Assembly (NCBI GenBank): GCA_947476045.1
Contig: CANJNZ010000029.1
Coordinates: 1-48,050 of the forward strand
Reading direction: 5' to 3'
Source of the DNA: Chthoniobacteraceae bacterium
GTDB lineage: Bacteria > Verrucomicrobiota > Verrucomicrobiia > Chthoniobacterales > Chthoniobacteraceae
DNA: 48,050 bases
Part shown: positions 22,125 through 43,766 of the stretch, one piece after another
Layout of the letters: each line of letters begins with the position of its first letter
How positions within the stretch are numbered: the stretch's first letter is position 1
The notes under the pieces: generated by a model
What the model was told of the DNA's origin: nothing
The model's input: only the letters and a program-made list of their open reading frames with translations
The model's database searches: none
Position numbers and translations under genes: made by a program

Positions 22125-22316
22125 ATGACACCCGACCTTTAACGCATTTTTCAAAGCAAGCGCAGCTACCGGCAGCGACTCGCAGAGCGCCCCATCGCCG
22201 AAAAACTTCGGATGCTCGACGCCATGCGCGAACGCGCCCTACTCATCCGTCCCGCCCCGGAGCACGCGCAGTCAGCCATCCTCCACGAAGACCCGCCCAG
22301 CGCAGACAAGCACTGA
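22125..22316 (+). pseudogene. decayed antitoxin-like gene with an in-frame stop at codon 6
   Basis: Translation from ATG 22125 reads MTPDL, then TAA at 22140-22142, then continues in the same frame as RIFQSKRSYRQRL, AERPIAEKLRMLDAMRERA and onward to EDPPSADKH with a normal stop at 22314-22316. The IAEKLRMLDAMRERA block resembles small proteins often found next to nucleotidyltransferase-type toxins. A single C-to-T change (CAA to TAA) would explain the break. No toxin partner follows; the dispersed repeat starts 10 bp later. Confidence 0.6.
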
Positions 22317-22326
22317 CCAGGCACCA

Positions 22327-22520
22327 GTTCCTCGTCCCCCATTGCCCGTTGCCGCCGCAACGTCCCTGCGGGCTGCCTATGGCAGGCGATGTCGTTCCAC
22401 TCCGTTCCGAAATCTGAATCGAAGATGGAGCCGGGGCAGAGGTGGGGGCTCAAATCCCAAATCTAAAATCCGAAATCCGAAATAGCGTTGCCCTCCCAGC
22501 GCATTCATGGTTTCTCGCTC
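22327..22520 (+). repeat. dispersed modular repeat, copy 2
   Basis: Order here is the shared lead-in GTTCCTCGTCCCCC, core module A at 22344-22409, module B at 22416-22456, then an AAATCCG-type microsatellite and AATAGCG. The sequence then shares TTGCCCTCCC and a GGTTTNTCG stretch with the end of copy 1. Over the 83 bp shared with copy 3 (22327-22409) there are three differences. The start codon of the giant ORF at 22507 lies inside the end of this repeat. Confidence 0.85.
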
Positions 22521-25500
22521 GCGTTCAACGTCCGCTCTGCTCGTTATCGCCGGCAATAATGGCGAGGAGCGGCTGATTTCCAACGTCGATGCCCGTATCG
22601 CGGACGACGAGGCGCCGGGACTCATCGTCACGCAGTCGGCAAACTCCACGAATGTGATTGAGTCCAGCGATCTGGTCGTGCTGGGCGAGGGCTTCGTGAA
22701 CAAGGTGCTCACGGGCAGAAAATATCTCGCGATCACGTCGCCCGCGAAGAATGCACCGGCAGGAACTTACAGCATCACGGTGAGCACTCCGCTTGGTGCC
22801 GTGCTGGCTACAGCCAGTGTCGCGGCCAGCGGCACGGCATCGATGGATAGCATCGCGGCCCAGCTCGCTACGATTCTGAACGACGATCTGGATGTTACTG
22901 CGCAATACGACATCACATCCGACGGCGGCATCTACAGCGCAGTCTTTAATATTGGCGCTGAGAACGGCGCGCAGATCATTGTCGCATACGACACGCTACC
23001 ATCCGGTGTGACTGCGAAGTTTGTCACACGCTTCACCGGTGACTTCGGCGTAGCCGTTCTGCGCGAAGTCGGTATTCACGATTCCATTTATACGGCGCAG
23101 AACATTGATCTCGCACGCTGGAGCGCTGCGTCCAATTCAGACATCGTGAGCTATATGGCCTCGGGGACGCCGAAATGGCATCCGCATCTCACCATTCTGG
23201 GCACAGGCGATGGTAATACGGACTTTTACCGCTTCAGCATCACGGATGCGATGCTGCGCGCGCAAAACGGGCCAATCACAGTGACCTTTGATATCGATCA
23301 CGGTTTTGACTACAGCGACCCGGTATTCTGGCGCAGCGTCATCAAGGTTTACGATCAGGACGGACGTCTCATCGGACAGGGTTCGGGCTTCTCGGATCCG
23401 CTGGACTTTGCGCAGAGCGGCACTGGTAGCAGCACCTACTACGATGACTTCCTGACTTACACTTTCTCGCAAAAGGGAACTTACTATATCGAAGTGGACA
23501 ACGGCTTTGGATTTGGCGGTCTGCCAACCGGAGTGGATTACACGTTGCATGTCAGCATTCCGCAGCACGCCGTTTCGGGCTTTGTATTTGCGCCCGAGGC
23601 GCTCAGTGAAGATGAGGACAACAATGACGGAGTCACCAGCACCACCGCTCAGAACGTGGATGCCAAGGCGAACTTCTTCACATTCTTTGATCCGAACATC
23701 GGCAACGTCATCTTTGGAGGGGGCATCAACTCAGAAACCCCATACGTGCGCATCCAGGGCAGTGGCGATGGCACCTACGACGTTTATTCATTTGTCGTCA
23801 CGAATCAGATGCTCAACCCGAACTCCGTCGAGTCCATCACGCCGGCCGGAGGAGATGGGAAGACATACTACAAGGAAGTGGTATTCAAACTTTCTGGCCA
23901 GATTCACACGGGAGATGTCTGGACGCTGCCGGACGTGCGTTATCGCAGCTATACCCATACGGTGGTTGACGGCGATACGCTGCAATCCATCGCGCAGGCT
24001 CTACTGGACCAGTTGCCAAGCCGGTTCTTTATCCCGCGCGATAATGGAAACGGAACGTTCAGCACCACAAACACCACTGCGGATGGCACCATCACGCTGA
24101 TTGACGAGGCAGGCTTCACATTTGGCGGCTTGACGCAACTCATCCCGCGCGCAGGCACCGTGACTCGCTCGACCACGCCGAAGGATTCGGCCAATGCCGA
24201 TGTCACATTCAGCGAGGCGGACATCACGCTAAGCAACATCATCAACACTGCGGAGACGGATGCAGTGAACGCGACCCCGGGCGACATCTGGTGCGTCACC
24301 GTCACCGATGCGAAGACAAATACCTCGGTTACAAGGTCTCATCCAGTTCCAACAACAGGCGAGACACTCGCGCAGGTCGCAACCGCTCTTGCGACTGCCA
24401 TCGGCAGTTCCTTCGGCGCGACGCCTAACGGAGCAGGCATCCACCTCTCGAAAGTAGATGGCTTCCGACTGAGCGTGAGCGTGGCTGGTGAAAACACGCG
24501 CGGCTACATGAGCATCGCTGGACGCCCGCTTCTGAAATACACGGCCGTGACGCTCTCGCTGGGTGCCGGCACAAATACGAACGCAGCTGACGGCGATGCA
24601 TGGACAGTGGCTCTCGACGGAATTGATTACACCGTGGATGTCACCGATTCGGTCACCCCGCTTGATACTGGAGTTGCAGAGTCATTGAAAACCCATGCCG
24701 TCACCGCAGGCTATACCGTCACACGCTCGGGCACATCGCTCACAATCAGCCGCGCGACGGCCTTTACGCTCACCAGCTCCGTTACAAGTTCAGTTTCGGC
24801 CAGCGCCATCACAGTTTCTGGCGGCACGACTTACCAGCCTCAGTTCACCACGGCGCAGTGGGACAGTGCGGACTATATTCTCGCGGGGCCGGTTCGTGAG
24901 GGAGATCGCTGGACGTTGACGCTCAATAGCGAAAGCTTCTTCCGCGTTGTCAGATCCACAGACAATGCGCAGGCCGTTGCGAATAACATCCGCGACTCGA
25001 TCAACAATGATCCCGACAATCATTTCACCGCGACCGTGCTCGGATCGAATGCGGCTGGATGGCGCATCCATGTCACTCCAAATGACACCGCCAGCAAAGG
25101 ATTCACATCGAGCTTCAGCATACTCAGTGAAGGCAGGGGAATTACAGTTACCGGCACACTGGAGTCAGCGGTGTTCACATTCAACGGGACACCACACCTG
25201 GGTGAAAAATGGCGTATCAAACAGGGAACCACCGAGCTTTACGCGCACGATGTCACAAATCCGGGAGGAGTAATCGAGACTACCGCAACGGTGATTGATG
25301 CGCTTGTAAATAGCATCAACAGCAATACCGCAGATGTCTATGTGGCGCGCGCGGAGGAAGGAAACAAACTCGTGCTTACCAGGGTGGATGGAAGTGCGCT
25401 GCCGACACCTCTCACCGGGGAAGTCGTGCCAGCAGGCTCCTTCTCCTCGATAGACGCCACCGGGAACAACAGCTCAGCGCTTGAATTCAGCGGGACCCCG

Positions 25501-28500
25501 CACATCGGGGAAATCTGGCGTATCACCGTGGGGACACTCCCGGCGATTGATTACGCAATCACCAGCACAAGTCTCGAAACCGCAGCGCGCGGTGTCGCAG
25601 CTGCGGTCGATGCGCTTACGGGCTATGTTGCAGTTGCAAATCCATCCCCGCAGACGACCGGCAACTGGCGTGTGTCGTTTGTGCGCATCTCGGCAAACAT
25701 GCCGACCGTCACGGTTGATGTTCTGCCCGGAACGACCGATTCGCCAAGCTCCCTCGCCACACATACGGTCACACTTACACGCACACCGGCTGTCGGCGAG
25801 GTGTGGAGGATTGATTTCCCGTCCAATATCTTCGCTTCGGTTACGGTTCTCGACACGGACGCCGGCACGCCGGTGGTTCCGGAAACGCTCGATGCGCTGG
25901 CCATTCGTCTGGCTGCTCAAGTGGACGCACTCGCGGGTTACGTGGCACCGCCGCCAGTCGCTGGAGTCATCACAATTACCAGCGCCAACGGCACTGATAC
26001 GTTTACTGCTGACCTCTCCGTCAATGGTGCAGTAGCCAGTGCTGCACCTACAGCCGATCCTGCCTTCGCCATCGTTAATCTGGGGGTTAACGCGAATGAG
26101 GGTGACACATGGTCGTTTGGCCTGCCGCTTTCTCCATCCGGCACGCTCACGGCAAGTGCCACGGTCGGCATAAATGGCTTCCTGGATCTGCTCAACGGCT
26201 TTGTTGCGGATATCGACAGCGACGCATCCTACACCGCTGGCTACGAGAACAGTGTTACTTCACACACCCTCGTCATCACGCGTCAGGGCGCTACCTTTTT
26301 GCTGACTAACAGCGCTCTTACCGTGACATCGCCTGACACCATTACCGGTGGCACAAAAACCGGAACGGTGATCGGACGCAGCCTCGATTCAAACGGAGCT
26401 ACGGTTGCAGGCAACGGGACCCCGAATGTAGGCGATACTTGGAGCCTTACTTTTGCCGGAGCGACATACTCCACAATCGTAGTCACCGCCGATACCAATG
26501 CGACTGTCGCGACACGTCTCGCGGACTTGGCGAATACAGGCAGCGGTGCCGAACACGCGGTAGTCAATGAGGGTGGGGTTATCTATCTTTCGACATTTGG
26601 CTCGGCCTCCACCGCTGCAGGGGATGGCAATGTGGCGGTCACCCTTGCGCCAGTGCACGGTGGTTTCATCGTGGATGGTGTTGCGAAGGCGGCGCAGAAG
26701 CAGACGGTGGAACTGTTCCAGACAGATGGAATTGCTGTCGGCGACATCTGGAGGCTCTACATCAAGAATGCATCTGGCGTGTCCACGCTGTATGATTTCC
26801 CGGCCAGTTCAGCCGACTATGGCAACGTCACCGACGGTCTCGCTGGTAAATTGCCTACTGCGACCTACGACGCTGCAACGAACACCACGGATGACTTTAT
26901 CCTTGATGTGTCGCGTGATGATGGAGCGCCTGTTCGCTTTGGAAATGGCAATACGGTCTTTGATTCCGCGCTCTCGCATACTCGTCCGAATGCCTACACA
27001 GGTCGCACGAATGTGGATGACACACGCACACACTACCTGCCGTCTTCAACGATCAAGCTGGCGAATGATCCTGACGCGGGCGGATTCCGCTCCGGTGATG
27101 TGTGGAGACTCTTCCTGGATAACCAATACTACGAATACGAAGTGCCGAGCGGCCTTGACCGTCCGCGCACACTGAGCACGGTCGCCGCCGGATTGGTTGC
27201 CGCACTGCGCGGCGCAGTATCTGTGCGGACGGTGACAGGCGGCAGCTCCGTGGCAAATGAGGTGCAGGAAATTTACCTCAATGTCCCGCCTGCGCCAGCC
27301 GTTCAGGGGACCTTCAAGTTGACGTTCCGTGAGGGGTCGAGCGCGACAGCAAATACGCTGACGACCGCAGACATCGCGTGGGGTGCGACCGCTGCGGACG
27401 TAGCGCTTGCACTCAATGATCTGACGCTCAGCACAGGGGACAAACTCAACGTGAGTGTGACAGGAAGCGGCACACAGGCCGATCCATGGCGAGTGACCTT
27501 CCTGAATCCCGGCAGCTTCAACGTGCCCGTCCTCACGGGTGCTGTGAAATTCGACGGCACTGACGCTGACCTGCTGGCGGATGATGTCGGCAACCCTGCT
27601 TACGATGTGACTTACACGACTGGCGAAGTGCAGTTCACCGTCACGGACCGCGATTCGACCGCGGGCAATCAGGATCCATTCATCTTCGACGTGAAGCGTG
27701 GCGGCAAAGTTCACGTGGTGCTCGATATCGATAAGAGCAACCTGCTATATGATTACTTATATATCTTCGGCTACACGGCGAGTGTGGCGGTCGAACTGGT
27801 AAATGGCAGCGGCACTGTTCTGGCGAAGGATCACTACGGACTTTCCAGCCATCAGAATATCGCGGATCCCGGTAGTGAGACATCGCGCGATGCGTTCCTT
27901 GAATACGACATCACGCAAATCAGCGGCACGAGCGAGACGTTCTATGTTCGCGTCAGTTCGTATATCGATTTCGACGAATTCGGATTCTACGGCATCCCAA
28001 GCTATTATTACTTCCCTGACGGTCTGGCTGGCGGAGTGGTGCCCGGTCAAAGCTACGAACTGAACATGTCGATTCAGGGTCACCAGACAAACGAATCGGC
28101 CATCGGTCTGGTGGGCAAGACGCTCGCCATCGTGGGCGGAACGGGAGTGGGTCAGACCGCGCTCATTCTCGGCTATGATGCGGAGGCGAAGGAATACACG
28201 CTGGATCGCGCATGGACGACCACCCCGGATAACACAAGCAAGTTTGAAATCAGCTATCATCTTTCCGAGGAATTCCCCGGCACGTATGCGACGAAAGCGC
28301 AAGTTACCGACAGCTACTCGGTCACGCTTACAAAAAACCCGGGCGCACTAGTTTATCTGAGAGCCGTTCCATCACTCACGCGCACCTACAACTCGAACCT
28401 TGCGTTTGATTCCTCGCAGAACAACGGACGCAACGAGACGGTTCAAGTCCGCACAGCCACGCAGCAGGCGACAATCGAACTGCGCGGAGTCGTAACCGAC

Positions 28501-31500
28501 GGAGAAATCTGGACGCTCAAGCTCACCGAAGCCGATACATCGACGCCGACCAACGCTGCGAAGAAGCCGCAACCATTCAGCTATGCCGCAGCCAGCGGAG
28601 ACACGCTGGAACACATCGCATCGGAACTGAGCGCGAAAGTGGATGCCACTGCGCTTTTCGTCGCGACTGCAAATGGCGCAACCATAACTATCACTTCGAA
28701 GCGTGCGCCATTCTTCACGCAAGTCCTGCTCAGCCGCGGCGGCGCCGACATCACTCCGACCTACACATCCGGCGCACTCACCAGCGCTGGAGTGAAACTC
28801 ATCGGAACACCGACCGTGCGCTACCCGGTTTCCGAAGTTTGGAAACTCACACTCAACGGGGAGGACTTGAATTACCACGTCAACGTAGGCGACACGCTTG
28901 CCGATATTGCCGCCGGATTGGTTGCGGCATTTAAGCGCGACGGTCTCACCGGGACACCGACTGCCGAGCGATTCGACGGCTTCACAGTGGCAGTGGATGG
29001 AGCGGACAACACCAAACTGAATATCACCAGCTCAGCAGCGTTCACTCTGGCCTTTACCGTAACAGGGGATAGGAACGGTGCGTTGCTCACTGGCACTCGC
29101 GATACGACGGGAGCCTTCAACAATCTAAATGTAGCACTGACCGGTCATCCGAACGGCGGCGCTGCAACGCCAGAAGTTTGGAAACTCAGGCTTGGGTCTG
29201 CGGATTTGAAATACACTGCTCAGGTCAATGATACGCTTTCGACTGTGGCAAACGGGCTGCTTGCCGAGTTCAATCGCCAGGGTCTGGGCACGCTTTACAC
29301 TTTTTTAGTCACCACCTCCTCGATTGAGGTGGCCCGCATCGGCGGGGCAAGTTTTGCGGCATCATTTATCGTCACTCCAAATTACGAAACACAGTCGATC
29401 GTCACGCCATCTGTCATTTTCGCCCCGGATAGCTGGGATGGCGCTGCGACCATCACCCGCGGCAGTGGCACACCTGCGACGCCGGCGACAGATGGCGCGA
29501 TTTACTATGATGAGACAAACAAGGTTTCGTATCTCGGCGCAGGAACCGAGTGGGTGACGCTTACCAACTGGAATGTCTCCCAGGAAGTGTATGTGGAGGC
29601 CATCGACGATAACTTTGTGGATGGTTCAGACGCGCTGGTGTTCCCGTCGCCCGAGCAGCGCGTGAATGGCATACGTGGTCCGCTCACCATCAACGGTGGC
29701 ATCGGCGTCGCTGAGGATGCGTTCCTCAACGATCCATTCCGTCTGCCCGGCGAGACGAACTTCCCGCTGCCTGACGGACGCGTGTATGGGCCTGTCGCAG
29801 CAGGGTCGGTGGGTCGAATCACCGATACATACTCCATTCACACTCTGCCGGAATACGGTGAGCGTCTCGGCTTTGATCCGCGCACCAATCTCTCCCTTTA
29901 CAACGTAACGCTTCTCGATGGCGGAGCCGAAGGCAGCTTCCTCGATCTGCTGGGCACAAACTCCAACATCCTGACGGTGGCGTTTAAGAATGCCTTCGCC
30001 GCGAGCGCAACGCTCAGCGGTTCCGGAAACGTCACCTTCACAGGTGTGCCGCTTGCCTCAGAGGTTGGCTCCATTCAATGGCGCAGCGTGATGGTCAGTC
30101 TCTCCGGCGTGGCGAGTCGCAATGAAAAATGGAACGTCAGCCTTGATGGAACAAATTACACGGTGCGCAGCGTCACGCTCTCCGCTGCCGATGTCGCCAA
30201 TCTTAACGGCGCCATTTCCAAATTGAGCGGCGCGCCGTCCACCGGAACCAGTCCGCTGACCTATCTATGGAGCCTCTTCACCGCCGGCGAGAAGGCGAAC
30301 CTGCTGGATGGCGCAACAAGCGCAGCGGCCAAACTCAGCATCCTCCTGAGAGTGCTCAATGGCGCAATCACCGACAGCACTGCGCTGAATGTCCATGCGA
30401 ACTTCCAAAATGTCGTTCTTTCGAGCGACACGATTAATCTCATTACGCAAAATCCGACCGGCGAAGCGCTGCTGCGTTTGAATCGCCTCCTCATCAATGA
30501 TGCGCTCACCGGTGCCATCGCGCCTGATACTTCGACGCTGCTTGAAATGGTGGACAAGCTCCGCGCTCAGTTGCCTGTTGTAGGCGACGTTCCAGTTTAC
30601 ACGGTGGATTTCTTTGCGAGCGTCTTTGGAAACCGTCTCATTGTTACTCGAAACGGGGTTCCATTCACCTTCGACTTCTCAGTGGATGCAACGAGCACGA
30701 TCCGCGCGACAGTCCGCGGCACACCCGACACGATGCCCGTGGGCGCGATATGGACACAGGCAGCCTGGGTATTCACCGGTGACATCAGGGCTGGCGACAC
30801 GGCGGCAATCTCGTTCGCTGGCATGACATTCAATGCGGCAGTTCCATCAGGTGCCACGGCTGACGCGCGTGTCGCGGGCCTCACGGCACTGCTGAAAAAT
30901 GCGATGATGCTGGATACAGTCGGAGTTCCTGTCGGAATCCCCAGTATCACCCAAGGCACTTTAGCTAGCGCGTTCCAGCCGGGAATCACGGGCGACACGA
31001 TCCTCTTCCGCAACAACGTCGAGGTCGCCACGCCATTCGAGATTTCCGCAAGCGCAAATCTCACGCTAGTCACCACCCCGGACAGACCCGCCTCCGGCAA
31101 GGCCGCACGCGCCGAACTCAAAGTCGCGGTATCGAGCATTTCTGTGAACGACATATTCACGGTCACACTCAATAGCACACCATTCAGCTACGCGGCGAAA
31201 CGTGGAGACCGCGCAGCGGATGTCCTGCTTGGGCTCCGCGATGTGATTGCTCGCAGCGCCATCGGCGCCACTTTCCTGCCCGCAATTGTGGATGGCGCGC
31301 TTACGATCAAGTCGCTGCAAATCGGGGACTCCTATTTCTATGCACCGGTAAATCTCAACACACGTGTCACTGAGAGTGAACAGGTGGACATCCTGAATGT
31401 CTTCAATGCCGACAGCCCCGCCGATGACAATGGCACACTCACCGAAAGCACCGTCACGGGCCTCGGCATGGGCGGCGGCGCGGTCGTCGGCGGCCGTGCA

Positions 31501-32307: not shown

Positions 32308-35300
32308 CGCGCAGCGCAGGCTACGCTGATGTGGTTCTTGATTATGCGATGACCGCATCGCAAGTCGCCGCTGCCCTGCGTGAGGCATACGGCTCTGCGA
32401 ATATGGATGTCACCATGGCAGTCACGCCCGGCGATAAGACTTACACAGTCACCTTTGTCCGTGACTTCGCCGGCAGAGACTTCAAGCAACTTGCATGGCT
32501 GCCGGGCGTGCTGGCTCCCACTGACCTTACGAATGTCTCCGGCCTTACCGCAGCGCTCGCCGCAAACAACAGCCTGGCCAATTACCTGCGAACACGCCTG
32601 CCGGCCAATACGCTGAATAATTTGAGCGACAGCGCGGCACTGCTGGCCGGATTGAATTTCATCATCGGCGATACTGTCCCGCTTTATGATGCAGCGGCCT
32701 TTGCTGGTGTTACACTCAGCCAGGCTACGCGCGACGCTCTTGCACGCAACCCGGGCGGCTCGGAGCTGGCACTGCTGCACCGCCTGCTACTCAACGATGC
32801 ACTGAGCACCTTCATCGCCGCGACACAGCTTACACCAGCGGAAGACGCTTCCGCTTTCGTCGCCCTTTCTACGCTGCGCGATGGCACGACAGTCCCCGGA
32901 GTCGGCGTGACGAACCAGCAGGTGATCAACGTCAATGCGACGACAGGCACGTTTACCATCGGTTTCCGCCTAAATGCCGCTGCCGCTGCCGAAGTTCTGC
33001 ACGGTAAGTTGGTGACAAAAGATGGAGTGCTCGTTGTGCAGTCGCCATATGTGCCTTCGATCAGCGGGACGACGGTTACGACCGGATCGATTCCGCTTGG
33101 CGCGACGGCGGACGTGATCGCGCGATTCCTGGATCCGGTTCTCAACCCGAACAACAGCGACCTCGATCTGCCACACACGGACAATTTCGTGGTCACTCGC
33201 ACGGCAGGAGCCATCGTGTTTACCTTCCAAGGTGCTTATGCGGGTTACTCAATCCAGCCCGACGACATCACGGCTCTGCCGGGGGCGCTCGCGCTGCCGC
33301 CGCAGACAATCACAATTAATGCAAATGGCGGCACCTTCCGCATCGGCCTGCGCCTGCCGGGTGGACTCACTTACACACAGCCGATCGTTCATAATGCGAG
33401 CGCAGATGCCGTGCTGCGCGCACTGGCACCGCTGGTGGAGCCAGCGAATGCCACCACACCGCGCAGCGAGGCTCCGCTTACGGCAAATGTCGCCGTCACC
33501 AAGCAGGGCAATGTGTATGTCATCACTTTCCAGGGAGACGCGGCAGATCTCCGTATCGTGCCGGGAGACATCGATGGAGCCCTGCTCGACTTTGTCACGG
33601 ACGATGTGAATGCGCGCGGAACTGCGATACTGGGCACGCAGCTTGAGGGAATTGCCTACTATGGCTTCGAGGAAATGAACCTCGACCTCGCTGATGGCAG
33701 CGACATCTTGAACATCCGTGGCTCGGCTGACGGAACAGTGACGAATGTTCGCACGCATGGCGGCGACGATCGCATCTACATTTCATCGCAGGCCGATCGC
33801 CGTGCCGACAACATCATCGGCTATGACTACCTCAACGGCACGCTCAATGACATCCGCGGTATCCTCAATGTGGACGGCGGCGCGGGTCGTCAAACGTTGA
33901 TGATTTCGGATGAAGCCGCCGTTCTTGGCGACACCGGCGTGGTCATCACCGATAACTTCACCGGCACCGGCCTGCCATCCGCTGAAATCCTCATCTCTGG
34001 TCTAGCGCCCGGAATTATCACGTATGGCGCGCCGAAGGCGAACGGCAACTTTGCGAATGGCATCACGATTTGGAGCGGCTTTGGAGATGACGAGATCGTG
34101 ATTGATGGAACCCTGCGCCGCGATGGTCTGCGCACCATTACGACACTCAATACCGGACTCGGCGACGACACGGTTACCGTTGCGCTCACTGCGGGTGAGG
34201 ACGACTTCTTCGTGCTGAATACACAAGGCGCGTATCACAACCAGCCTACGCTGACAGACAAGGACAAGGTCTTCGCGCAGGGGTCCACTCTACCGCTCAT
34301 CATCTTTGGTGGTCAGGATGCGGATGAAATCCACGGCGGCATGGCTGGAGACCTTCTCTTTGGTGACCGCGGTCAAGTGCTCTACAGTGATGGTGGAAAT
34401 ATCGTCGCCGCTCTCGGACACGCCGGCCCGGGTGACTTCACGGATGGAGTAATTCGTCCGCTGACGCTTGCATTCACAGAATACGCAGACATTGGCGGAG
34501 GCGATCACATTTACGGACGCGAAGGGCGCGACCTCATCTTCGGCGGCTTCGGCGGGGACTTCATCTATGGCTTCGATACGAACCTCACCAACTCCGATGT
34601 GCAGGCCGATGTGCTCGTCGGTGACAGCGGAATGGGCACGTTCATCGCCGGGGTGCTCATCGAGGTGCGGACGATTGCGCCGTCTGTCGGCGGTATGGAT
34701 ACCATCGTTTCCGGCAAGGGCGCGAATATCGTGCTCGGCGGGGCCGAAGGTGACGATATCACACTCGCAGGCAACGATGCGTTTGATGTGGCGCTGGGAG
34801 ACAACGGACGGGCGACCTACGACATTGTGAGCGGACTGCTCCTGCGCGCAGAAACAACTGACTCCGCAATCGGCGGAGTGGATACGATCCGTGGCGCTGA
34901 CAGCGCAAACGTCATCCTTGGTGGCGCAGCCGGCGACTTCATCACCACGACAAATGATACCCGGCGCAACTTCATCCTCGGCGACAACGGTGAAGTAACC
35001 TTCGACCTTGCTGGCATGGTGATTCGACTCACCACCACGGACCCGGCGATTGGCGGCAGCGACACCATCGTGAGCGGTGCCGCGAGCGATCTCATCGCGG
35101 GCGGCGCGGGCGGCGACAATATTTCCAGCGGAGCAGGGGACGACTTCGTGCTCGGCGACAATGGTATCTTCGCATTTGCACCGGCGGGCACGCTCGCGAC
35201 GATGACTTCAAGTGATCCTGCCATAGGCGGCAGCGATACAATCCTTGGCGGCGACGAAGAAGACATTATCTTCGGCGGCACCGGAGGAGATGCGCTGCTC

Positions 35301-38300
35301 AGCGGCGGCAATGGACACGACATCATTCTTGGCGATGCCGGCTTCTACGACGCCTCGCTGCCGCTGAATCAAAACTTCCTCTCCATCTTTACCGGCGCAA
35401 ACAATGGCGGCGGGGACGACAATATTTACGGCGATGCAGGCGATGACTTTATCCTTGGTCAGCAGGGTGCGGATCAGATTTTCGGCGGCGCTGGAAATGA
35501 TGACATCACCGGCGGTCACAACGTCCTCGGTGGCGCGGATGGAGGCGACTTCATCGATGGTGGAGCGGATGCTGATGTCGTGCTTGGCGACAACGGACTC
35601 ATTTCGCGTCAGATCATCGCTGGCTATCCATCAGCATGGCGCACGTATCCCGCCCCATTTGACGATGTCGTAATCCGCACGGTCGTTCGTTTTGATGACA
35701 TTGATTTGGTGGCGGGCAACGACAACATTAACGGCGGTGACGGACAGGACACGCTGCACGGCCAGCGCGGCAATGACGTAATCGACGGTGGCAATGGTGA
35801 TGACGAAGTCTATGGCGAGACAGGCGCCGACATCGTCAGCGGTGGCGACGGCAACGACGTGGTGCTTGGCGATAACGGCTTTGCGCAGCGCGCATTTAAC
35901 TCCGATGGCACGCCTCGCCTGAATGCCAACGGCTCGTGGCATCGCGATATCTTCCTCGAAGACGTGGGTCGTTTGACAGGCGTTGTGAAGATGGACGTGC
36001 ATCCGTTGCGCCTCGACGACCCTGCGCTCGCGAGCAAGTTGCTCAATGCCGACCTTGCCATCCTTGGCGGAACTTATCTGCCCGGCGGCGCAAGACTCAT
36101 CAACAGCGACAGCGGAGCATGGGATACCGAGTTGCTGCTCGTGGACTTGCTGCCAGCCGACAATGACACCGTCAACGGCGATGCTGGCGATGACTTGCTC
36201 TTTGGTCAGCGCGGAAACGACACCATCAACGGTGGTAGTGGAAGCGACGTCATCTTCGCCGATGGAGCCTTCAATTCACTGCCATTCGGAACGAATCTCC
36301 CGCAAATCGTCAGCGGAATCCGAATCATCGGGGTTGATGCCGGTGTGCCTTATACGGTCGCGGCTGGCGGCAGCGTCCTCGTTCCAAACATGGCGCTCCA
36401 GCCGCTGGAACTGAATGGCACTGCTCCGCAAATCAACTTTGTGCCGAACTTTGCATTTGGCGACCTCGCGGCAGCGGACACGCTCCGCCGCAACGATGGT
36501 GCGGTCAGCCTGCCGCTCATTTCGCTCGTGCCGGATCTCATCCATCACACGGACAACCTGCCGGGCAATGATGTGATCGACGGCGGCAGTGGCGGCGATA
36601 CGATTTTCGCAGACGATGTGCTGGTTGGCACGCTGCCGTTCCAGGGCATCGCAGCGATCGACAGCGCCATCGAAAACGTCCGGAGCACTGCCTTCTCTGT
36701 CCTCACGGCGTTGCATGCGCTCTCGCTGGATTATGACTTGCAGCAGGGCGGCGTCGGAGCGCCTCGCAACATCCTCATTGGAAATGACACCATTGCTGGC
36801 GGTGACGGCGATGACTACATCTATGGCGACAACGCGCTCCTTGCTGTGCCGTTCGCGACAGGCAGCCCCGCTTCCACGTCGAACTTCACCATAGCTGCGC
36901 TGCGCTACCATAATTTCCTGCGCGACCTCGAATACGTGGCCACTGACTTCCTCAACATGGCGCAGGAAGCTCACGTGGGTGTGCTCCGAAATCTTGTGGA
37001 CACTGCGCTCCTCACAAATCCGACGCGCTCGCCGGCGCTCCGTCCGAAGCCGCTTGCTCCTAACTTCCATCATCTGTTCATCGGCAACGACATCATTGAT
37101 GGAGGCGCTGGCAACGATGTCATCACCGGCGATGCCGGCGTGGTGCTCGCGCCGGTGCTGTCGGGTCGCAGCTTCTTGAAAGTCACCGATGCGCTCGGTA
37201 TCACACCACAGGTGCTTAAGGACACGCAAACAGCGCTCGCTACGCAGCAGAAGGTGCGCGCCGCAGAACTGGCATATCATCTCGTTACAAACGTCGCCAA
37301 CTGGTCGGTGCGCCAGCCTTCCTCGGCAGACCTCCGCCTCATCCCCGCCGTATTTGAATACAACCTCTATATCGGCAATGACACGTTGCGCGGCGGCAAC
37401 GACAACGACCTGCTCATCGGCGACCGCAGTATTCTGATCATCCCAATCATCGCCGATGTAACGAAGACCGCGAAGGTGGCGCAGGCCGAAATCGCACGCT
37501 TGCTTGCAGACTTCCAGGTATTGCTCGGTGGCAATGCCTACGCCTCCAACTATCGCTATACGGCAGCAGCTATCGGCCATGCCGGTGGCGCGAAGGGTGT
37601 CGCGCTCGTGGCAAGCTATGACGTGATGAATGGCGACGCAGGAGACGACATTGCGTTCGGTCGTGACGCTGCTTTCGTCCTGCCATTTGTCAGCGCCACG
37701 CCGACGACACTTCTCAAGCTCGACTTTGCATTTAGCAACAGCGGCACAGGGTTGATGTTTGTTTCCTCGCGATTCTCCAACGGTCGCACGGTGGCACCGG
37801 GCAGGGACTTCATGGACGACAGAATCGGCAAAAACACCCAGCTCGCCCAGACAGGCAACGTCAGCCGCACCGTCACTGAGCAGATGCGCAATCTCGCATT
37901 CAATTCTCTCACGACAAACCTGCGTGAGTTGCTGGGCGACATTGGCGCGACGGGCGGTGTAATTATGCCAGGAGGCGATGTAAGCGTCCTGCCTCCAGGT
38001 GCGACAACTGTGCGTGAGGCGACCCTTTCGATCAGTGTCGCTGTCCAGCAGAAAGGCAGGAACGCCTTTATCCTGAATGCACTGCTAGAGGGTCTGGCGC
38101 TACCATCCCGCTTTGCCTCTGTCTGGCAGTTGGTCGATGTTGCCACTGGAAAGATTATCGTTAGCGGCACTGGGTCCGAGTTCACCTTCGCACTGCTGAA
38201 GGCCGGCGACTACCGGGTGAATCTGATCGTTGCGGATGTGAGCAGCGGAACCTTTGGCATCACCAGCGCCACCATCCATTTCAATACTGGCCGCACCGTC

Positions 38301-41300
38301 ATCCATGCTGGTGTTACAGGCGCACTCAGCGGCTACATTAATCAGCCCGTGAAATTTGTTGCGCTGCTGGATGACGTCGCGCTCACCGGGCCATACAGGG
38401 CGGACTGGCAGGTCTTTGACTCCCTGGGCGCCGTGGTGGATGGCACCAGTGCAGCGCGCACGTTCACGTTCACTCCCGGCGCGGACGGGGTATTCACTGT
38501 GCAGCTAACACTCACGGATACTCTGACAAACCTCACTGCCACCGTGACGCAGGTTCTTACAATCAGTTCAAATGCACGGACGCTGCCTCTGGCTATTGCA
38601 GGTCCTTCGACCGGCGTGCGTGGAAAGGTGCTCACATATACAGGTCAACTCCTTGCTGGTCAGTTAGGCGCTCCTGACTTTGGCGCAAACTACGCGGCCA
38701 CCTGGACCGTGTTTGATCACAAGAACAGCATTGTCGCGACAGGCAGTGGCTCGCAATTCCTCTACCTGCCTGTATTGCCCGGTCAGTATCGCGTTCAGCT
38801 TCAACTCGTGAACTCCGTAAGCGGTGAATTTGGCGTAGCCGTTCAAACGCTGAACGTCACAGCGCCAGCACCGACATTCTCGACAGGCATTAATGGTCCG
38901 ACCATCAGCACACGCGGTCAGGCAGCGGTCTTCGACGCCCTGGCCAATGGCGCAGCACTGCCGGATGGCTATACGGCTTCTTGGAAAGTAACGAACTCAG
39001 AGGGTGGCGTTTTGGCCACCGGAATCGGAGCGCGTTTCACCTATGCAGCAACAATGCCGGGCGAGTTTAGCGTAGCCCTTGCGATTGTTGACACCAAGTC
39101 TGGCGATGCCGGTTCCGCGCTGGCGACCCTTCGGATTGTGCAGCCCGACGTTTCACTCACTGTCGGCATCACCGGGCCGACTGTAGCGCAGACTGGAACC
39201 ACGCTGAACTTTGGCGGTCTGCTCGACGGCGCGGCGTTCAACGGAAACTATACCGTTTCATGGCGCGTCTTTGACTCCGCAAACACAGAACTCCCCGCAA
39301 GTGCTCTGGGTGCAACGAACGCGCGCGAATTCGCCTTCGCGCCGACGGACGCAGGCGCGCACACGGTGCTCTTTACACTCACCGATCCGGTGACTGGTGC
39401 GGTGGGTCTTGCATCTCTCGTTCTGAATGTGGACACCACAATTCCGACGGACACGCTCACTCATACCATCACTCTCATAGGTCCCGTGTCTGCGCAAGCA
39501 GGGCAGCGTCTTGTTTACGCAGGCCTGCTCGACGGAACGGCTGTGCCGCCGAATTTCCAGATTACATGGAGCGTCATTGATCTGGCTGCAACTAGTGGAA
39601 GCCCGGTGGACACCGGCACCGGCGCCGACTTCATCCACACACCTGCCGCAGGCGACTATTCGGTGCAGCTAATCTTGAAAGACGCCAGTTCGACAGTCAT
39701 CGGATCGGCTGTCACCACATTGCACGTCGAAGCTGCTGCGCCGGTATTTGATGCCGGAATCACAGGACCGCTGACAGGTTTCGTCGGACAAATTCGCAGC
39801 TTCAACGCACTCACCGCAACGCCCGCCGGATACACAGCAACCTGGACTTTGGTAAATGGCGCGAATGCCACAATCGCCAGCGCCAGCGGTGATCAGTTCG
39901 TCTTCGCGGCACCAGCGGGCGGTTTGTATCGCATCAATTTCACCGTCACCTCGCCGGACGGTTCGGAGCGTAGCGCGACCACCTACTTCACATCAACAGA
40001 CGCCACGCCAGTGCTGCCTGTCACAATCACTGGCCCGGCGAACGGCGTGCTCAACGCGCCGTTCACCTTCACGGCGCTGCTGGAGGGCGCGGGTATTTAT
40101 GCTGGCTTTGTGAAGACGTGGACTTTGCTTGATGGTGCGAGCGTGGTGCAGACTGGCAATGGCGACAGTTTCACGATTACGCCGACAACAGCAGGGCAGT
40201 TCACCGTCCGTTTTGATGTCGCTGATGCTGTCACCGGCGCAATCGGCCACGCCACCACACCGTTCAATGTCAGCCCCGCTTCTTCAGCATTGAATGTCAC
40301 GTTCAACGGCCCGGCGCTTGGTGTCGTCGGACAAGCGCTCGTGTTCGACGGATTGCTCGATGGTGCTGCGTTCGGTGAAAACATCGTCGCGACGTGGAGT
40401 GTCACCGATCAAAGCAACGCCGTTGTTGCGCAGGGAAGTGGTGCGCAGTTCACATTTGCTCCGACCAGCGTGGGTCAGTTCAGCATTCGCTTCAGCCTGC
40501 AGGATACGACAGCCGGATCTTTCGGAACGGTGAGCGCACCGCTCAGCGTTGCTCTCATTGGCGGTCTTGATGTCGCACCAGTCGCACCGAGCAGCCTTGG
40601 CATTGACGGGCCGGATAATGCCGTCCGCGCGCAGGCACTCACATTCCACGCGCTCCTCGATGGTGCGCAGATCGTCGGCAGCGGCTACGAAACCGCATGG
40701 CAGGTGATTGATGCCGCGAACCTCGTCGTCGCCACCGGCCTGGGTAATCAATTCACCTTCACGCCGACGGACGCCGGAGTCTTCAGCGTGCGCGCATCGC
40801 TCACAAACAGCGTCACCGGCGCACTCCTCACCGCAAACACCAGCGTGAACGTTTCCGTCTATCTGCTCACGCCGGATCTCGACCCTGCGAATGTCGGAAA
40901 GTCCATTCTGCTCGTTGGCGGCAGCATCGGAGCGGACGTGATTCGCTTCACCAAGTCGCGTATCGCGGACACGATCACGCTCAATCTCGATGAGCGCGAA
41001 ACCGGCGCGGAGAAGCTCAAGCAGGACTTCATGCTTATCAGTCGCATCGCAGTGTTCGCCGGCTCCGGCGATGACTCGGTCTCCATCGCACCGGTGCTTG
41101 AAATCCCGATGCACATCGAGGGCGGCGCCGGACGCGATTCGCTCACCGGTGGCAAGCTGGGGGATACGCTCCTTGGCGGATTCGGCGATGACACGCTCAT
41201 CGGCGGCGACGGTGCGGATGTTCTCGATGGCGGACGTGACAACGACACCCTGCGCGGCGGACTTGGTGATGATGCTCTCATATCCACGGATACCGGCGAC

Positions 41301-42521
41301 GACATGCTCTTTGGCGATGGCGGAAACGACACCTTCCACCTCGCGCCTCGCAAAGTGGAATCACACATCAGCGCCGACGGCGGGGCAGGGGATGACACAT
41401 TCAATATTCCAGCCAGCGCGCGCGACAGCCGCATCACCATCATCACCGGCCTTGGCAGAAACACCGTAAACATCGGCAGCGCAGCAGGCGTGCTTCCGGC
41501 AACAGGCGGCATCACCGATGATGTCCTCGGCAGCATCGAAATCACCGCCACTCGCAAAGACACACTCAACGTGGACGACACCGCCACACTCCGCGCGAAA
41601 GTATGGACGCTTGGCGCGAACACACTCACCGATGGCTCGTTTACCCTCACACATCGCGGCCTCGGTGCGTTGAATCTCTTCCTCGGCTCCGGCAGTGATT
41701 CCATCATCATCGGCGGCACCTCATCCGCCCTCACTGATGTCTTTGTAAACGCTGGCGACGACATCTTCGACCTCCAGACCACAGGCGCAACTACCTTCAC
41801 ACGTCTGGAAGGCGGCAGCGGCGTCAACACTCTGAACGCCGGTGTCAGCATCAACAAGCTCAGCGGTTTTAAAGGCGGCGTCTTCTACTTCGGCAGCGGC
41901 GCGGATGCCTTCAACGCCGACGACAGTGGTCGCCGCGCAATCAACACCGGCGCACTGAGTGCGGGCGACGCAACACAAAGCGAACCCATCAATCTCTCCG
42001 GCTTTGGAATGAACATCGCTGGCATCAGCGCCACCGGCATCGCTGGTGTGAACATCAAACTCGGTGGAGGCGCAGACACGCTCACCATCAACAACACACC
42101 GTCCGTCCCCGTCAGCATTGATACCGGCGCGGGCAACGACATCGTCAAAATCCACGCCACACGCGGCGCGCTCAATATCGCACTGGGCGAGGGCAATGAC
42201 ATCGTCAAATTCGGCAGCAGCCTCGCCATCACAGGCAACTCCCCGATCTTCGTCCGCGGCCCCGTCACACTCGATGGCGGCACCAACTTGAAAGACCGCG
42301 ACATCCTCGACGTAAATGCCAGCGGTCTCCTCGGCATCGGCGAACTCACCACCACCACACTCACCGGCATCGGCTTCATTCAGCCCGTGAACTACAGCGC
42401 CTTCGAGTCCGTGAAAATCCTCCTCGGAGCGGGAGACGACACATTCACCCTCGGAGCCGGCACCAGCGCCTACACCACCCTCAACGCCGGTCGCGGCAAC
42501 AACACCATCATCCGTCTGTAG
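32112..42521 (+). CDS. giant mosaic surface/secreted protein, part 2 (RTX and Ig-like)
   Basis: 3,469-codon ORF with a nominal TTG start, more probably the continuation of the preceding ORF. Order: solenoid module (32,214-32,500), a helical insert resembling the one at 30.2-30.6 kb (RLLLNDALS here, RLLINDALT there), strand-rich modules (32,900-33,620), and solenoid (33,650-34,290). A calcium-binding RTX block with many LGDNG motifs follows (34,311-37,690), then ten Ig/PKD-like domains (38,022-40,857), a short canonical RTX block (about 41,045-41,350), and a solenoid tail of GAGDDTFTL/GNDIVKF repeats. RTX repeats bind calcium on export and are typical of type I secreted proteins. No T1SS genes and no obvious sorting domain are present. 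It ends 15 bp before convergent cotH. Confidence 0.85.
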   Translation: MDDRVQNSPVPFGNTGTLTATGITGLDMFTLSEVQKFTVQAKSGKYVLRVPGYGVETTLASTSNVTRSAGYADVVLDYAMTASQVAAALREAYGSANMDVTMAVTPGDKTYTVTFVRDFAGRDFKQLAWLPGVLAPTDLTNVSGLTAALAANNSLANYLRTRLPANTLNNLSDSAALLAGLNFIIGDTVPLYDAAAFAGVTLSQATRDALARNPGGSELALLHRLLLNDALSTFIAATQLTPAEDASAFVALSTLRDGTTVPGVGVTNQQVINVNATTGTFTIGFRLNAAAAAEVLHGKLVTKDGVLVVQSPYVPSISGTTVTTGSIPLGATADVIARFLDPVLNPNNSDLDLPHTDNFVVTRTAGAIVFTFQGAYAGYSIQPDDITALPGALALPPQTITINANGGTFRIGLRLPGGLTYTQPIVHNASADAVLRALAPLVEPANATTPRSEAPLTANVAVTKQGNVYVITFQGDAADLRIVPGDIDGALLDFVTDDVNARGTAILGTQLEGIAYYGFEEMNLDLADGSDILNIRGSADGTVTNVRTHGGDDRIYISSQADRRADNIIGYDYLNGTLNDIRGILNVDGGAGRQTLMISDEAAVLGDTGVVITDNFTGTGLPSAEILISGLAPGIITYGAPKANGNFANGITIWSGFGDDEIVIDGTLRRDGLRTITTLNTGLGDDTVTVALTAGEDDFFVLNTQGAYHNQPTLTDKDKVFAQGSTLPLIIFGGQDADEIHGGMAGDLLFGDRGQVLYSDGGNIVAALGHAGPGDFTDGVIRPLTLAFTEYADIGGGDHIYGREGRDLIFGGFGGDFIYGFDTNLTNSDVQADVLVGDSGMGTFIAGVLIEVRTIAPSVGGMDTIVSGKGANIVLGGAEGDDITLAGNDAFDVALGDNGRATYDIVSGLLLRAETTDSAIGGVDTIRGADSANVILGGAAGDFITTTNDTRRNFILGDNGEVTFDLAGMVIRLTTTDPAIGGSDTIVSGAASDLIAGGAGGDNISSGAGDDFVLGDNGIFAFAPAGTLATMTSSDPAIGGSDTILGGDEEDIIFGGTGGDALLSGGNGHDIILGDAGFYDASLPLNQNFLSIFTGANNGGGDDNIYGDAGDDFILGQQGADQIFGGAGNDDITGGHNVLGGADGGDFIDGGADADVVLGDNGLISRQIIAGYPSAWRTYPAPFDDVVIRTVVRFDDIDLVAGNDNINGGDGQDTLHGQRGNDVIDGGNGDDEVYGETGADIVSGGDGNDVVLGDNGFAQRAFNSDGTPRLNANGSWHRDIFLEDVGRLTGVVKMDVHPLRLDDPALASKLLNADLAILGGTYLPGGARLINSDSGAWDTELLLVDLLPADNDTVNGDAGDDLLFGQRGNDTINGGSGSDVIFADGAFNSLPFGTNLPQIVSGIRIIGVDAGVPYTVAAGGSVLVPNMALQPLELNGTAPQINFVPNFAFGDLAAADTLRRNDGAVSLPLISLVPDLIHHTDNLPGNDVIDGGSGGDTIFADDVLVGTLPFQGIAAIDSAIENVRSTAFSVLTALHALSLDYDLQQGGVGAPRNILIGNDTIAGGDGDDYIYGDNALLAVPFATGSPASTSNFTIAALRYHNFLRDLEYVATDFLNMAQEAHVGVLRNLVDTALLTNPTRSPALRPKPLAPNFHHLFIGNDIIDGGAGNDVITGDAGVVLAPVLSGRSFLKVTDALGITPQVLKDTQTALATQQKVRAAELAYHLVTNVANWSVRQPSSADLRLIPAVFEYNLYIGNDTLRGGNDNDLLIGDRSILIIPIIADVTKTAKVAQAEIARLLADFQVLLGGNAYASNYRYTAAAIGHAGGAKGVALVASYDVMNGDAGDDIAFGRDAAFVLPFVSATPTTLLKLDFAFSNSGTGLMFVSSRFSNGRTVAPGRDFMDDRIGKNTQLAQTGNVSRTVTEQMRNLAFNSLTTNLRELLGDIGATGGVIMPGGDVSVLPPGATTVREATLSISVAVQQKGRNAFILNALLEGLALPSRFASVWQLVDVATGKIIVSGTGSEFTFALLKAGDYRVNLIVADVSSGTFGITSATIHFNTGRTVIHAGVTGALSGYINQPVKFVALLDDVALTGPYRADWQVFDSLGAVVDGTSAARTFTFTPGADGVFTVQLTLTDTLTNLTATVTQVLTISSNARTLPLAIAGPSTGVRGKVLTYTGQLLAGQLGAPDFGANYAATWTVFDHKNSIVATGSGSQFLYLPVLPGQYRVQLQLVNSVSGEFGVAVQTLNVTAPAPTFSTGINGPTISTRGQAAVFDALANGAALPDGYTASWKVTNSEGGVLATGIGARFTYAATMPGEFSVALAIVDTKSGDAGSALATLRIVQPDVSLTVGITGPTVAQTGTTLNFGGLLDGAAFNGNYTVSWRVFDSANTELPASALGATNAREFAFAPTDAGAHTVLFTLTDPVTGAVGLASLVLNVDTTIPTDTLTHTITLIGPVSAQAGQRLVYAGLLDGTAVPPNFQITWSVIDLAATSGSPVDTGTGADFIHTPAAGDYSVQLILKDASSTVIGSAVTTLHVEAAAPVFDAGITGPLTGFVGQIRSFNALTATPAGYTATWTLVNGANATIASASGDQFVFAAPAGGLYRINFTVTSPDGSERSATTYFTSTDATPVLPVTITGPANGVLNAPFTFTALLEGAGIYAGFVKTWTLLDGASVVQTGNGDSFTITPTTAGQFTVRFDVADAVTGAIGHATTPFNVSPASSALNVTFNGPALGVVGQALVFDGLLDGAAFGENIVATWSVTDQSNAVVAQGSGAQFTFAPTSVGQFSIRFSLQDTTAGSFGTVSAPLSVALIGGLDVAPVAPSSLGIDGPDNAVRAQALTFHALLDGAQIVGSGYETAWQVIDAANLVVATGLGNQFTFTPTDAGVFSVRASLTNSVTGALLTANTSVNVSVYLLTPDLDPANVGKSILLVGGSIGADVIRFTKSRIADTITLNLDERETGAEKLKQDFMLISRIAVFAGSGDDSVSIAPVLEIPMHIEGGAGRDSLTGGKLGDTLLGGFGDDTLIGGDGADVLDGGRDNDTLRGGLGDDALISTDTGDDMLFGDGGNDTFHLAPRKVESHISADGGAGDDTFNIPASARDSRITIITGLGRNTVNIGSAAGVLPATGGITDDVLGSIEITATRKDTLNVDDTATLRAKVWTLGANTLTDGSFTLTHRGLGALNLFLGSGSDSIIIGGTSSALTDVFVNAGDDIFDLQTTGATTFTRLEGGSGVNTLNAGVSINKLSGFKGGVFYFGSGADAFNADDSGRRAINTGALSAGDATQSEPINLSGFGMNIAGISATGIAGVNIKLGGGADTLTINNTPSVPVSIDTGAGNDIVKIHATRGALNIALGEGNDIVKFGSSLAITGNSPIFVRGPVTLDGGTNLKDRDILDVNASGLLGIGELTTTTLTGIGFIQPVNYSAFESVKILLGAGDDTFTLGAGTSAYTTLNAGRGNNTIIRL
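34311..37690 (+). repeat. RTX nonapeptide block with LGDNG punctuation
   Basis: Clusters of GGxGxDxxx-type nonapeptides (GGAGGDNISSGAGDDFVLGD; GNDDITGGHN; GQDTLHGQRGNDVIDGGNGD; GDAGDDIAFGRD) are separated by 30-150-residue spacers. Many clusters end in LGDNG or a close variant (ALGDNGRATYD, ILGDNGEVTFD, VLGDNGIFAF, VLGDNGLISR, VLGDNGFAQR), marking a higher-order repeat of about 60-65 residues at 34.7-35.2 kb. Asp and Gly positions fit the calcium beta-roll. Confidence 0.9.
38022..40857 (+). repeat. ten tandem Ig/PKD-like domains
   Basis: Ten consecutive domains of about 85-95 residues share a pattern: a strand ending in xGP, GQxLxFxALLDGA, YxAxWxVxD, VAxGxGxxFTFxP, AGxFxVxLxLxD, then TGxxGxAxxxLxV. 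The first copy starts at TLSISVAVQQ, the last ends at TANTSVNV. The central copies (5, 8, 9, 10) are the closest to one another. The conserved Trp and the layout of about seven strands suggest an Ig-like or PKD-like sandwich. The array probably acts as a rigid stalk between the two RTX blocks. Confidence 0.85.
41045..41350 (+). repeat. C-terminal canonical RTX block
   Basis: About ten back-to-back nonapeptides: GGAGRDSLT, GGKLGDTLL, GGFGDDTLI, GGDGADVLD, GGRDNDTLR, GGLGDDALI and so on, ending in LFGDGGNDTFHL. This is the classic GGxGxDxLx spacing without spacers, unlike the interrupted block upstream. Confidence 0.92.
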
Positions 42522-42536: not shown

Positions 42537-43766
42537 TTATTTGAGCTGCCGCTCGATGGCCTTGCTGCGGACGTTGAAGAAGTCGCGGATGCGTTTGACC
42601 TCGTTGGGATAATTGGCTCCGGCGGCGGCATCCACTTTGGCGATTTCGGGCTGGAGTCGCGCTTGAAGTTCGTCGAGGCGCTTGTTCCATTTTTCGGGAT
42701 CCATCAGCGTCCCGTTGATCTCGGTGAGGCGCTTTACATACCGCGCCTTGCCCTCCGGCGTGGAATAGACGCCTTGCGCGACGAGGCCCTGCGGGGTTCT
42801 CGGGCCGGCCCATGGATTGGGGCCGATGGGTGGTAAAGCCGTGACCTGGTCGGCGCTGGCTGCGTGACCGCGCACGGGGAAAAACTCCTGGTCCATGCCC
42901 GAGGGAATGATGGTGATCTTGTCACGCTTGGGGTCGTGATAGACGCGGTAATTGTTCCGGTTGTAAATGTATCCGTCCCAATCTCCGATGATGGTGAGCA
43001 CGACGAACACGTTGATGAAGGCGTCCATATCGAGCAGCTTTTCCAGCCGCTCAAAACGTTTTTGCGGGTCGGGCTCGCGGGCGGCGGCGGTGAGCGCTTT
43101 CAAGTCGGCCCAGTCCTTCACATCCTCCTTGGTGCTTGTCAGTTCAAGCTGCTGATCCACGTCGCGCAGAAATCCACCGTCGTAGAAATTGCCGTCCGCA
43201 TTTTTGAAATGCCGCTTCAGAAACTGCGAGTCGTAGCCTTCTTTCAAATAGTAGAAGCCACGCACCTGACCGTTGACGCTCACGATTGCGTGTTGGATGC
43301 GAGCGGCAGGTGCGCCCGCAGCGCCCATCAATTCGCCGCAGACGAGTTCCGAGAGGTAGCTGCCGTCCTGCGCGGAGTTGGCGAGATGCCATTTCGACAT
43401 GCCGTGAAACTTCTCCTTCCCGCCAAATTTTCCCATGCTGATGGTGAAACCGGCCTTCTCGGTGATCTGCCGGAAACTGCCGGAGCCGCCGCGGAGATGG
43501 ATACCGACATCGGGATACACTTTGCCGTCCACGGTGAGCGTGGCCTTGATGTATTTGCGCGGCTCGGCGAGCAGCGGGCCGACGGGTTTCACGAAGCCGG
43601 GCGTCAGTCCAATCGTGATATCCACGCGCGGAATTTTCGCGCTGTTAAAAAAAGCATCGCTATCCGCAGCGGATTTGTCCGGCGATTTTCCTGCGGCAAA
43701 ACCGACTGTGCAAATCAATGTGAGCAATAGGATGACGGCCCTAACCGCCGCAGATTTCTGATTCAT
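42537..43766 (-). CDS. CotH-like secreted protein
   Basis: 409-aa protein of the CotH kinase-like family (CotH of Bacillus is a spore-coat protein kinase; homologues in Gram-negatives are exported and mostly uncharacterised). An N-terminal signal peptide is likely (about residues 8-25, hydrophobic VILLLTLICTVGFAAG). Family blocks: VGIHLRGGSGSFRQ, FHGMSKWHLANSAQDGSYLSE, VRGFYYLKEGYDSQFLKRHF, GDWDGYIYNRNNYRVYHDP, and ITIIPSGMDQEF. The C-terminal 90 residues are helical. It lies 50 bp downstream of the broken gntP and is convergent with the giant gene. Phosphorylation of the giant protein would be an attractive but untested idea. Confidence 0.8.
   Translation of the reverse strand: MNQKSAAVRAVILLLTLICTVGFAAGKSPDKSAADSDAFFNSAKIPRVDITIGLTPGFVKPVGPLLAEPRKYIKATLTVDGKVYPDVGIHLRGGSGSFRQITEKAGFTISMGKFGGKEKFHGMSKWHLANSAQDGSYLSELVCGELMGAAGAPAARIQHAIVSVNGQVRGFYYLKEGYDSQFLKRHFKNADGNFYDGGFLRDVDQQLELTSTKEDVKDWADLKALTAAAREPDPQKRFERLEKLLDMDAFINVFVVLTIIGDWDGYIYNRNNYRVYHDPKRDKITIIPSGMDQEFFPVRGHAASADQVTALPPIGPNPWAGPRTPQGLVAQGVYSTPEGKARYVKRLTEINGTLMDPEKWNKRLDELQARLQPEIAKVDAAAGANYPNEVKRIRDFFNVRSKAIERQLK

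What the first reader, a model, noticed from the sequence alone, without database searches (positions are those of the whole stretch)
22507..42521. One giant mosaic gene of about 20 kb split into two ORFs by a single-base frameshift
Seen: two abutting + strand ORFs of 3,266 and 3,469 codons overlap out of frame, and a solenoid module pair continues across the junction near 32,100. The tail of ORF 1 after the junction is Arg/Ser/Cys-rich shadow sequence. Joined, they encode about 6,670 residues, among the larger bacterial proteins. No slippery site is visible, so programmed frameshifting is unlikely.
Basis: partly seen in the sequence, partly recalled or inferred. Interest (0 to 1): 0.75.

Follow-up and report, generated by a model that had tools for sequence, protein, structure and literature searches.

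The report
Broken tail-end of a giant gene
Two long neighbouring reading frames in a Verrucomicrobia bacterium are not one complete giant gene but the last quarter or so of a far larger surface-protein gene that has lost its front end beside a dispersed repeat and has its frame broken once.

Summary
Two + strand ORFs (22507-32307, 3,266 aa; 32112-42521, 3,469 aa) overlap out of frame, and the coding frame switches near 32,100. Relatives show they were once one gene: in 8 of 8 informative homologous loci (9 found; one has an N gap there) the matching parts lie in one stop-free frame. No -1 slippery heptamer is present.

First, this is not the whole gene. In a relative of the same family the counterpart is one open frame of 22,536 aa; ORF1+ORF2 match its residues 16,500-22,533. 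The C-terminus is complete, but ORF1 starts mid-gene, directly behind a copy of a dispersed repeat. The relative's LEPR-XLL N-terminus is missing, and the two searched parts of the missing region (residues 1-3000, 13,500-16,490) were not found elsewhere in the assembly. Second, the frame break lies between two old copies of a module that relatives carry once, so the indel size is unknown and "single-base" is unproven.

Best reading: a 5'-truncated, frame-broken remnant of a known kind of gene. Whether truncation and break are biological or assembly/sequence errors needs reads. Programmed frameshifting and gene fission are unlikely.

The parts
22324..22500 (+). Copy of a dispersed repeat ending in (AAATCCG)n, directly upstream of ORF1; probable 5' breakpoint
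   Evidence: related copies at 21195-21356 and 46436-46594 in direct orientation; 93-nt core has 12 matches (itself included) in the own genome; (AAATCCG)n pattern 32 partly overlapping matches against 0 for the reversed control
22507..32115 (+). Coding part of ORF1: homologous to residues 16,500-19,426 of the 22,536-aa relative; first 14 codons unmatched in G014 (13 in L091, 4 in L089)
31789..32115 (+). Module A: diverged extra copy of a module that G014 and L091 carry once
32076..32150 (+). Region of the frame switch (ORF2 in the -1 frame relative to ORF1); best estimate near 32,100
   Evidence: Codon scores; homology
32116..32307 (+). Shadow tail of ORF1, scored non-coding in this frame
   Evidence: Negative codon score; Arg/Ser/Cys 23 of 63
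32112..42521 (+). ORF2: module B, RTX calcium-binding repeats, PKD domains, complete C-terminus (relative's residues 19,322-22,533 of 22,536)
32112..32510 (+). Module B, counterpart of the single module of relatives
   Evidence: 51-53% identity to G014 and L091
46436..46594 (+). Direct copy of the dispersed repeat at the far side of the block (95% over 93 nt)
   Evidence: homology to G001 resumes at 46,583

Best explanation
ORF1 and ORF2 are the 3' part (about 27%) of a giant LEPR-XLL/RTX-type surface-protein gene. A rearrangement at a dispersed repeat removed the 5' part with its start and probable export signal. A small insertion or deletion broke the frame between two old copies of one module. 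The intact relative (22,536 aa in G014) is most likely an exported, calcium-stabilised surface or adhesin-like protein; that role is inferred from domains only. The window copy, lacking that start, is most likely a recent non-functional remnant. Shown: single-frame relatives, mid-gene start, repeat at the edge, place of the frame switch. Inferred: order of events, loss of function, that both defects are biological.
For: G014 counterpart is one open frame of 22,536 aa with a LEPR-XLL N-terminus. ORF1+ORF2 match its residues 16,500-22,533 in order. Five loci with DNA further upstream (L088, L089, L091, L092, L093) carry stretches matching G014 between residues 15,380 and 16,563 at 39-48%. In L089, L091 and L092 these run on into homology to ORF1 from its residue 5, 14 and 103; in L088 and L093 the next ORF1 match begins only at about 1916-1932. 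Own-genome searches with G014 residues 1-3000 and 13,500-16,490 find no copy outside the window. A dispersed repeat ends 6 bp before the ATG. Relatives run through the junction in one frame, 8 of 8 informative. In the close genome G001 sequence like the NHL gene end lies directly before the ABC gene, without the block.
Against: Only one frame break in 20 kb and no in-frame stop inside the two coding stretches. ORF1 is about as similar to L091 (mostly 33-46%, one stretch 25%) as G014 is to L091 in that region (30-39%, 52% at its end), so there is no sign of relaxed selection. The genome is a draft in 123 contigs, and the 5' edge sits at a repeat where assemblies can misjoin. G014 residues 3,001-13,499 were not searched in the own genome, and the empty N-terminal search had no positive control.
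Confidence: 0.58

Rival explanations
1. Assembly and sequence error: the real gene is intact and far longer; the contig was misjoined at the dispersed repeat and an indel error broke the frame.
For: Repeat copies 93-98% alike over 76-93 nt lie on contigs C2, C65, C34 and C70 as well as in the window and one sits exactly at the 5' edge; draft genome of 123 contigs; frame break unique among 8 informative relatives; no sign of relaxed selection. A passage of PMC3711429 expects singleton frameshifts validated by BLASTp to be sequencing errors rather than genuine indels.
Against: The two searched parts of the missing region were not found outside the window. Neighbouring genes such as the RapA homologue and aconitase match their families nearly end to end in one frame, so indel errors are not frequent here. 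No homopolymer longer than 4 at 31,900-32,310.
Confidence: 0.25
2. Gene fission: duplication of a module gave ORF1 a complete last module and ORF2 a complete first module, and both are now made as separate proteins.
For: The frame break sits between the two module copies; both ORFs are long and stop-free.
Against: 0 of 8 informative relatives split here. ORF2 starts with TTG and has no clear ribosome-binding site by eye. ORF1 starts mid-gene without the LEPR-XLL N-terminus. The copies are only 32% identical with no significant DNA similarity, so the duplication is old while the break is known only here.
Confidence: 0.08
3. Shortened but working gene: ORF1 is expressed from a new start at 22507 and makes a shorter protein, with ORF2 lost or separately made.
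For: ORF1 has an ATG and a long open frame; C-terminus of ORF2 complete.
Against: No LEPR-XLL match and no ribosome-binding site by eye; the edge lies inside a region that continues in relatives.
Confidence: 0.06
4. Programmed -1 ribosomal frameshifting joins the two ORFs.
For: ORF2 is in the -1 frame and overlaps ORF1 by 65 codons.
Against: No X_XXY_YYZ heptamer; no conserved frame break in relatives.
Confidence: 0.02

Closest known systems
   Same: Same family by the tool's kinship table; matches in order over residues 16,500-22,533; same C-terminal end
   Different: One unbroken frame with LEPR-XLL N-terminus and 16,500 further residues; one junction module instead of two; none of 16 window frames found on its contig
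LEPR-XLL domain-containing giant proteins (NF012209)
   Same: The G014 relative carries the domain over the cut-off, 21.7 against 17 bits
   Different: Window gene lacks that end; the own genome has a separate 1,104-aa LEPR-XLL frame on contig C21 without BLAST match to G014's giant. The short model also passes the cut-off in 1 of 14 control genomes
RTX calcium-binding repeat proteins (PF00353)
   Same: 7 matched stretches in ORF2, E 1.2e-32
   Different: NCBIfam hits to RTX toxin models are far below their cut-offs and their best stretches lie in the repeats; no toxin domain was reported
Giant genes of Planctomycetes and other PVC bacteria (PMC5177795, PMC12057145, passages read)
   Same: Very long genes; a passage cites most giant genes as encoding surface proteins or PKS/NRPS
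   Different: Those passages describe long genes as such; this one is a broken tail end

Membership tests
LEPR-XLL giant surface proteins | LEPR-XLL sequence near the N-terminus | tested here: not met
   No match in ORF1; none seen by eye in the three frames of 21,901-22,720; present in the G014 relative
LEPR-XLL giant surface proteins | Homology in order to a member | tested here: met
   residues 16,500-22,533 of the G014 frame
RTX repeat proteins | Calcium-binding nonapeptide repeats | tested here: met
   PF00353, 111.9 bits against cut-off 23
RTX repeat proteins | Export by a dedicated type I secretion system | tested here: inconclusive
   The adjacent ABC transporter has a match in 32 of 34 genomes searched, while ORF2-head homology at E<=1e-20 was found in 2 of 40 family genomes, so it does not look dedicated; secretion itself not testable
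Programmed -1 frameshift genes | Slippery heptamer X_XXY_YYZ | tested here: not met
   none at 32,031-32,307 in any phase
Programmed -1 frameshift genes | Frame break conserved in relatives | tested here: not met
   0 of 8 informative loci broken; a ninth, L092, has an N gap there
Pseudogene | Disabling change absent from relatives | tested here: met
   Truncation and frame break against relatives
Pseudogene | Relaxed selection or loss of expression | tested here: inconclusive
   No excess divergence against L091; expression not testable here

The most novel reading that the evidence does not exclude
A giant protein gene was split into two working genes at a duplicated boundary module, so each half keeps a complete end module: evolution of giant proteins by module duplication followed by fission.
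Probability: 0.07. Interest if true: 0.6.

Novelty: new member of a known kind. Interest (0 to 1): 0.3.

Why it matters
It shows that an apparent 'one gene split by a frameshift' can be the tail of something more than three times longer, and that checking relatives upstream of the first ORF matters as much as checking the junction. It points to a 67.6-kb open frame in a Verrucomicrobia MAG and to homologues with the same local order at the junction in Roseobacter, Mariprofundus, Pelagicoccus and a planctomycete. If the losses are real, dispersed repeats are one way such giant genes are cut down. For the window itself the finding is fairly ordinary: a broken or mis-assembled gene.

Tried and rejected
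Programmed frameshifting: rejected (no heptamer; relatives unbroken). Independent genes: none of the 8 informative relatives splits here. A second independent break in L092 looked exciting (frame 1 to frame 2) but is an N-filled gap, so that row was dropped from the count. Missing 5' part on another contig: the LEPR-XLL frame on C21 is a separate 1,104-aa frame; searches with two parts of G014 found nothing outside the window; the tool itself warns that an empty answer without a control shows nothing. Dedicated secretion partner next door: the ABC gene is widespread. Synteny with G014: no match at E<=1e-10 for 16 window frames. Viral contigs: no relative. First genome-contig scan: no relative. 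Fold models of modules A and B have only moderate confidence (pLDDT 63.6 and 65.2); both show strands, one main helix, then strands. The PDB search with B gave no match at E<=0.001. The gene's own codon table was read in the wrong frame for ORF2 and is discarded; one search replaces it. G001 as empty site: suggestive only, since the G001 contig is 3.8 kb and the NHL match is 85% over 265 nt and could be a paralogue; G006 has yet another sequence there. That 16 neighbouring frames lack internal stops is no evidence, since they were chosen as ORFs. Recalled, not tested: the Calx-beta-like look of the ORF1 start and the guess that the order is Chthoniobacterales.
Full report
What is there. Two + strand ORFs of 3,266 and 3,469 codons lie at 22507-32307 and 32112-42521. 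ORF2 is in the -1 frame relative to ORF1. A codon model from the gene's own usage places the switch at 32,076-32,105 and prefers the switch to reading on in ORF1's frame by about 88 bits; codon usage of other window genes gives 32,073-32,150. Homology supports ORF1's frame to about 32,115, and ORF2's frame from 32,112 in L089 and from 32,151 in G014 and L091. The ORF1 tail after 32,115 scores as non-coding and is Arg/Ser/Cys-rich, 23 of 63 residues. No X_XXY_YYZ heptamer lies at 32,031-32,307.

Was it one gene? In L092 the place of the junction is a run of N, so it says nothing. In the other 8 of 8 the parts matching the end of ORF1 and the ORF2 side lie in one frame without a stop. The three Roseobacter loci are not independent lineages. 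The frame break is thus known only from this genome.

It is not the whole gene. In G014, a genome of the same family, the counterpart is one open frame of 22,536 codons that begins with a LEPR-XLL sequence (21.7 bits, cut-off 17). ORF1 matches residues 16,500-19,426 at 28-41% over the main stretches and 60% over the first 50 residues. ORF2 matches residues 19,322-22,533 at 55% over about its first 2,700 residues and 44% over its last 1,270, with a shift in the repeat region between them. The C-termini coincide. ORF1 however starts at G014 residue 16,500 after 14 unmatched codons (13 against L091, 4 against L089). Five loci with further upstream DNA carry stretches matching G014 between residues 15,380 and 16,563 at 39-48%. 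In L089, L091 and L092 these run on into homology to ORF1 from its residue 5, 14 and 103; in L088 and L093 the next ORF1 match starts only at about 1916-1932, so their order differs there. L091 residue 1204 corresponds to ORF1 residue 14, and L091 matches G014 at 48% across its residues 61-1265. So the window gene is cut inside a region that continues upstream in relatives.

The cut lies at a repeat. A stretch at 22,324-22,500 ends 6 bp before the ATG of ORF1. Related copies lie at 21,195-21,356 (parts in another order) and 46,436-46,594, all in the same orientation. The 93-nt core has 12 matches at 85-100% in this genome, itself included, three of them in the window; the (AAATCCG) pattern has 32 partly overlapping matches with up to one mismatch against 0 for the reversed control. 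The 24-kb block between the last two copies holds ORF1, ORF2, a CotH-kinase gene, a GntP permease and an alcohol-dehydrogenase-type gene. In the close genome G001 (95% DNA identity over ABC and PGI), sequence 85% identical over 265 nt to the end of the window's NHL gene lies directly before the ABC gene, as an empty site would look. G006 differs again there, and the G001 contig is only 3.8 kb, so this is suggestive only.

Is the missing part elsewhere? Own-genome searches with G014 residues 1-3000 and 13,500-16,490 found no copy outside the window; the second gave only two weak matches in the window itself. Residues 3,001-13,499 were not searched, and one search had no positive control. The one LEPR-XLL match over the cut-off in this genome is a separate 1,104-aa frame.

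The junction itself. The last part of ORF1 (module A) and the first part of ORF2 (module B) are copies of one module: 32% identical, with no significant DNA similarity. G014 and L091 have a single copy, closer to B (51-53%) than to A (34-36%). The frame break lies at the joint between the copies, where the end of A is also shorter than in relatives. The size of the indel therefore cannot be read off, and 'single-base' is not shown. AlphaFold models of A and B have moderate confidence and a similar strand-helix-strand order.

How it most likely works. The relative's LEPR-XLL start and the PKD domains and RTX repeats found in ORF2 suggest an exported calcium-binding surface protein; this is inference from domains. 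The window copy lacks that start and is broken, so it is most likely a recent remnant. Against this, ORF1 is no more diverged from L091 than G014 is in the same region, and there is no second break in 20 kb. The loss is then recent, or the defects are assembly and sequence errors, which the repeat at the edge makes plausible. A passage of PMC3711429 expects singleton frame breaks validated by BLASTp to be sequencing errors rather than genuine indels.

Distribution. ORF2-head homology was found in 2 of 40 genomes of the family, own included, at E<=1e-20, and in 2 of 387 genomes of a phylum sample, own included (there the outside match, in G328, covers part of the query in an 8,942-aa open frame). 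At E<=0.001 among 57 relatives it is 4 of 57, own included, two of them short partial matches in frames of 925 and 742 aa. None of the nine other genomes of the genus has a match at E<=0.001.

Literature. PMC12057145, PMC11573180, PMC5177795 and PMC3711429 were read as passages only; PMC12863079 was searched for five terms with no passage found. Giant genes of PVC bacteria up to about 85,800 aa are described (PMC12057145, citing a preprint I did not see), so length alone is not new. LEPR-XLL appears in 2 papers of the library (listing only). Other searches were (listings).

Verdict. Observation confirmed, interpretation partly supported, interest 0.3.

Noticed in passing
L086 / G014:C91:56655-124265: A single open frame of 22,536 codons (67.6 kb) with LEPR-XLL start in a Verrucomicrobia MAG.
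   Followed up: partly
L088 near 5963-5965: Roseobacter sp. GAI101 homologue shows one in-frame stop between two long open stretches; the NP10 homologue (L094) is open from 2 to 16630.
   Followed up: no
window 42537-43766: The CotH-kinase gene next to ORF2 is one of six related copies in this genome; G001 also has six matches at E<=1e-40.
   Followed up: no
window 19364-21961: In the listed matches the first 224 or more codons of the ABC frame have no counterpart, and DNA homology to G001 ends at 21,188, so the real start is probably near or below there and the gap before ORF1 is larger than the ORF suggests.
   Followed up: partly
window 22033-22316: Between two repeat copies lie short duplicated fragments (38 nt, 74%) ending in a stop codon.
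   Followed up: no
window 21195-21356: Third copy of the dispersed repeat, upstream of the ABC gene.
   Followed up: partly
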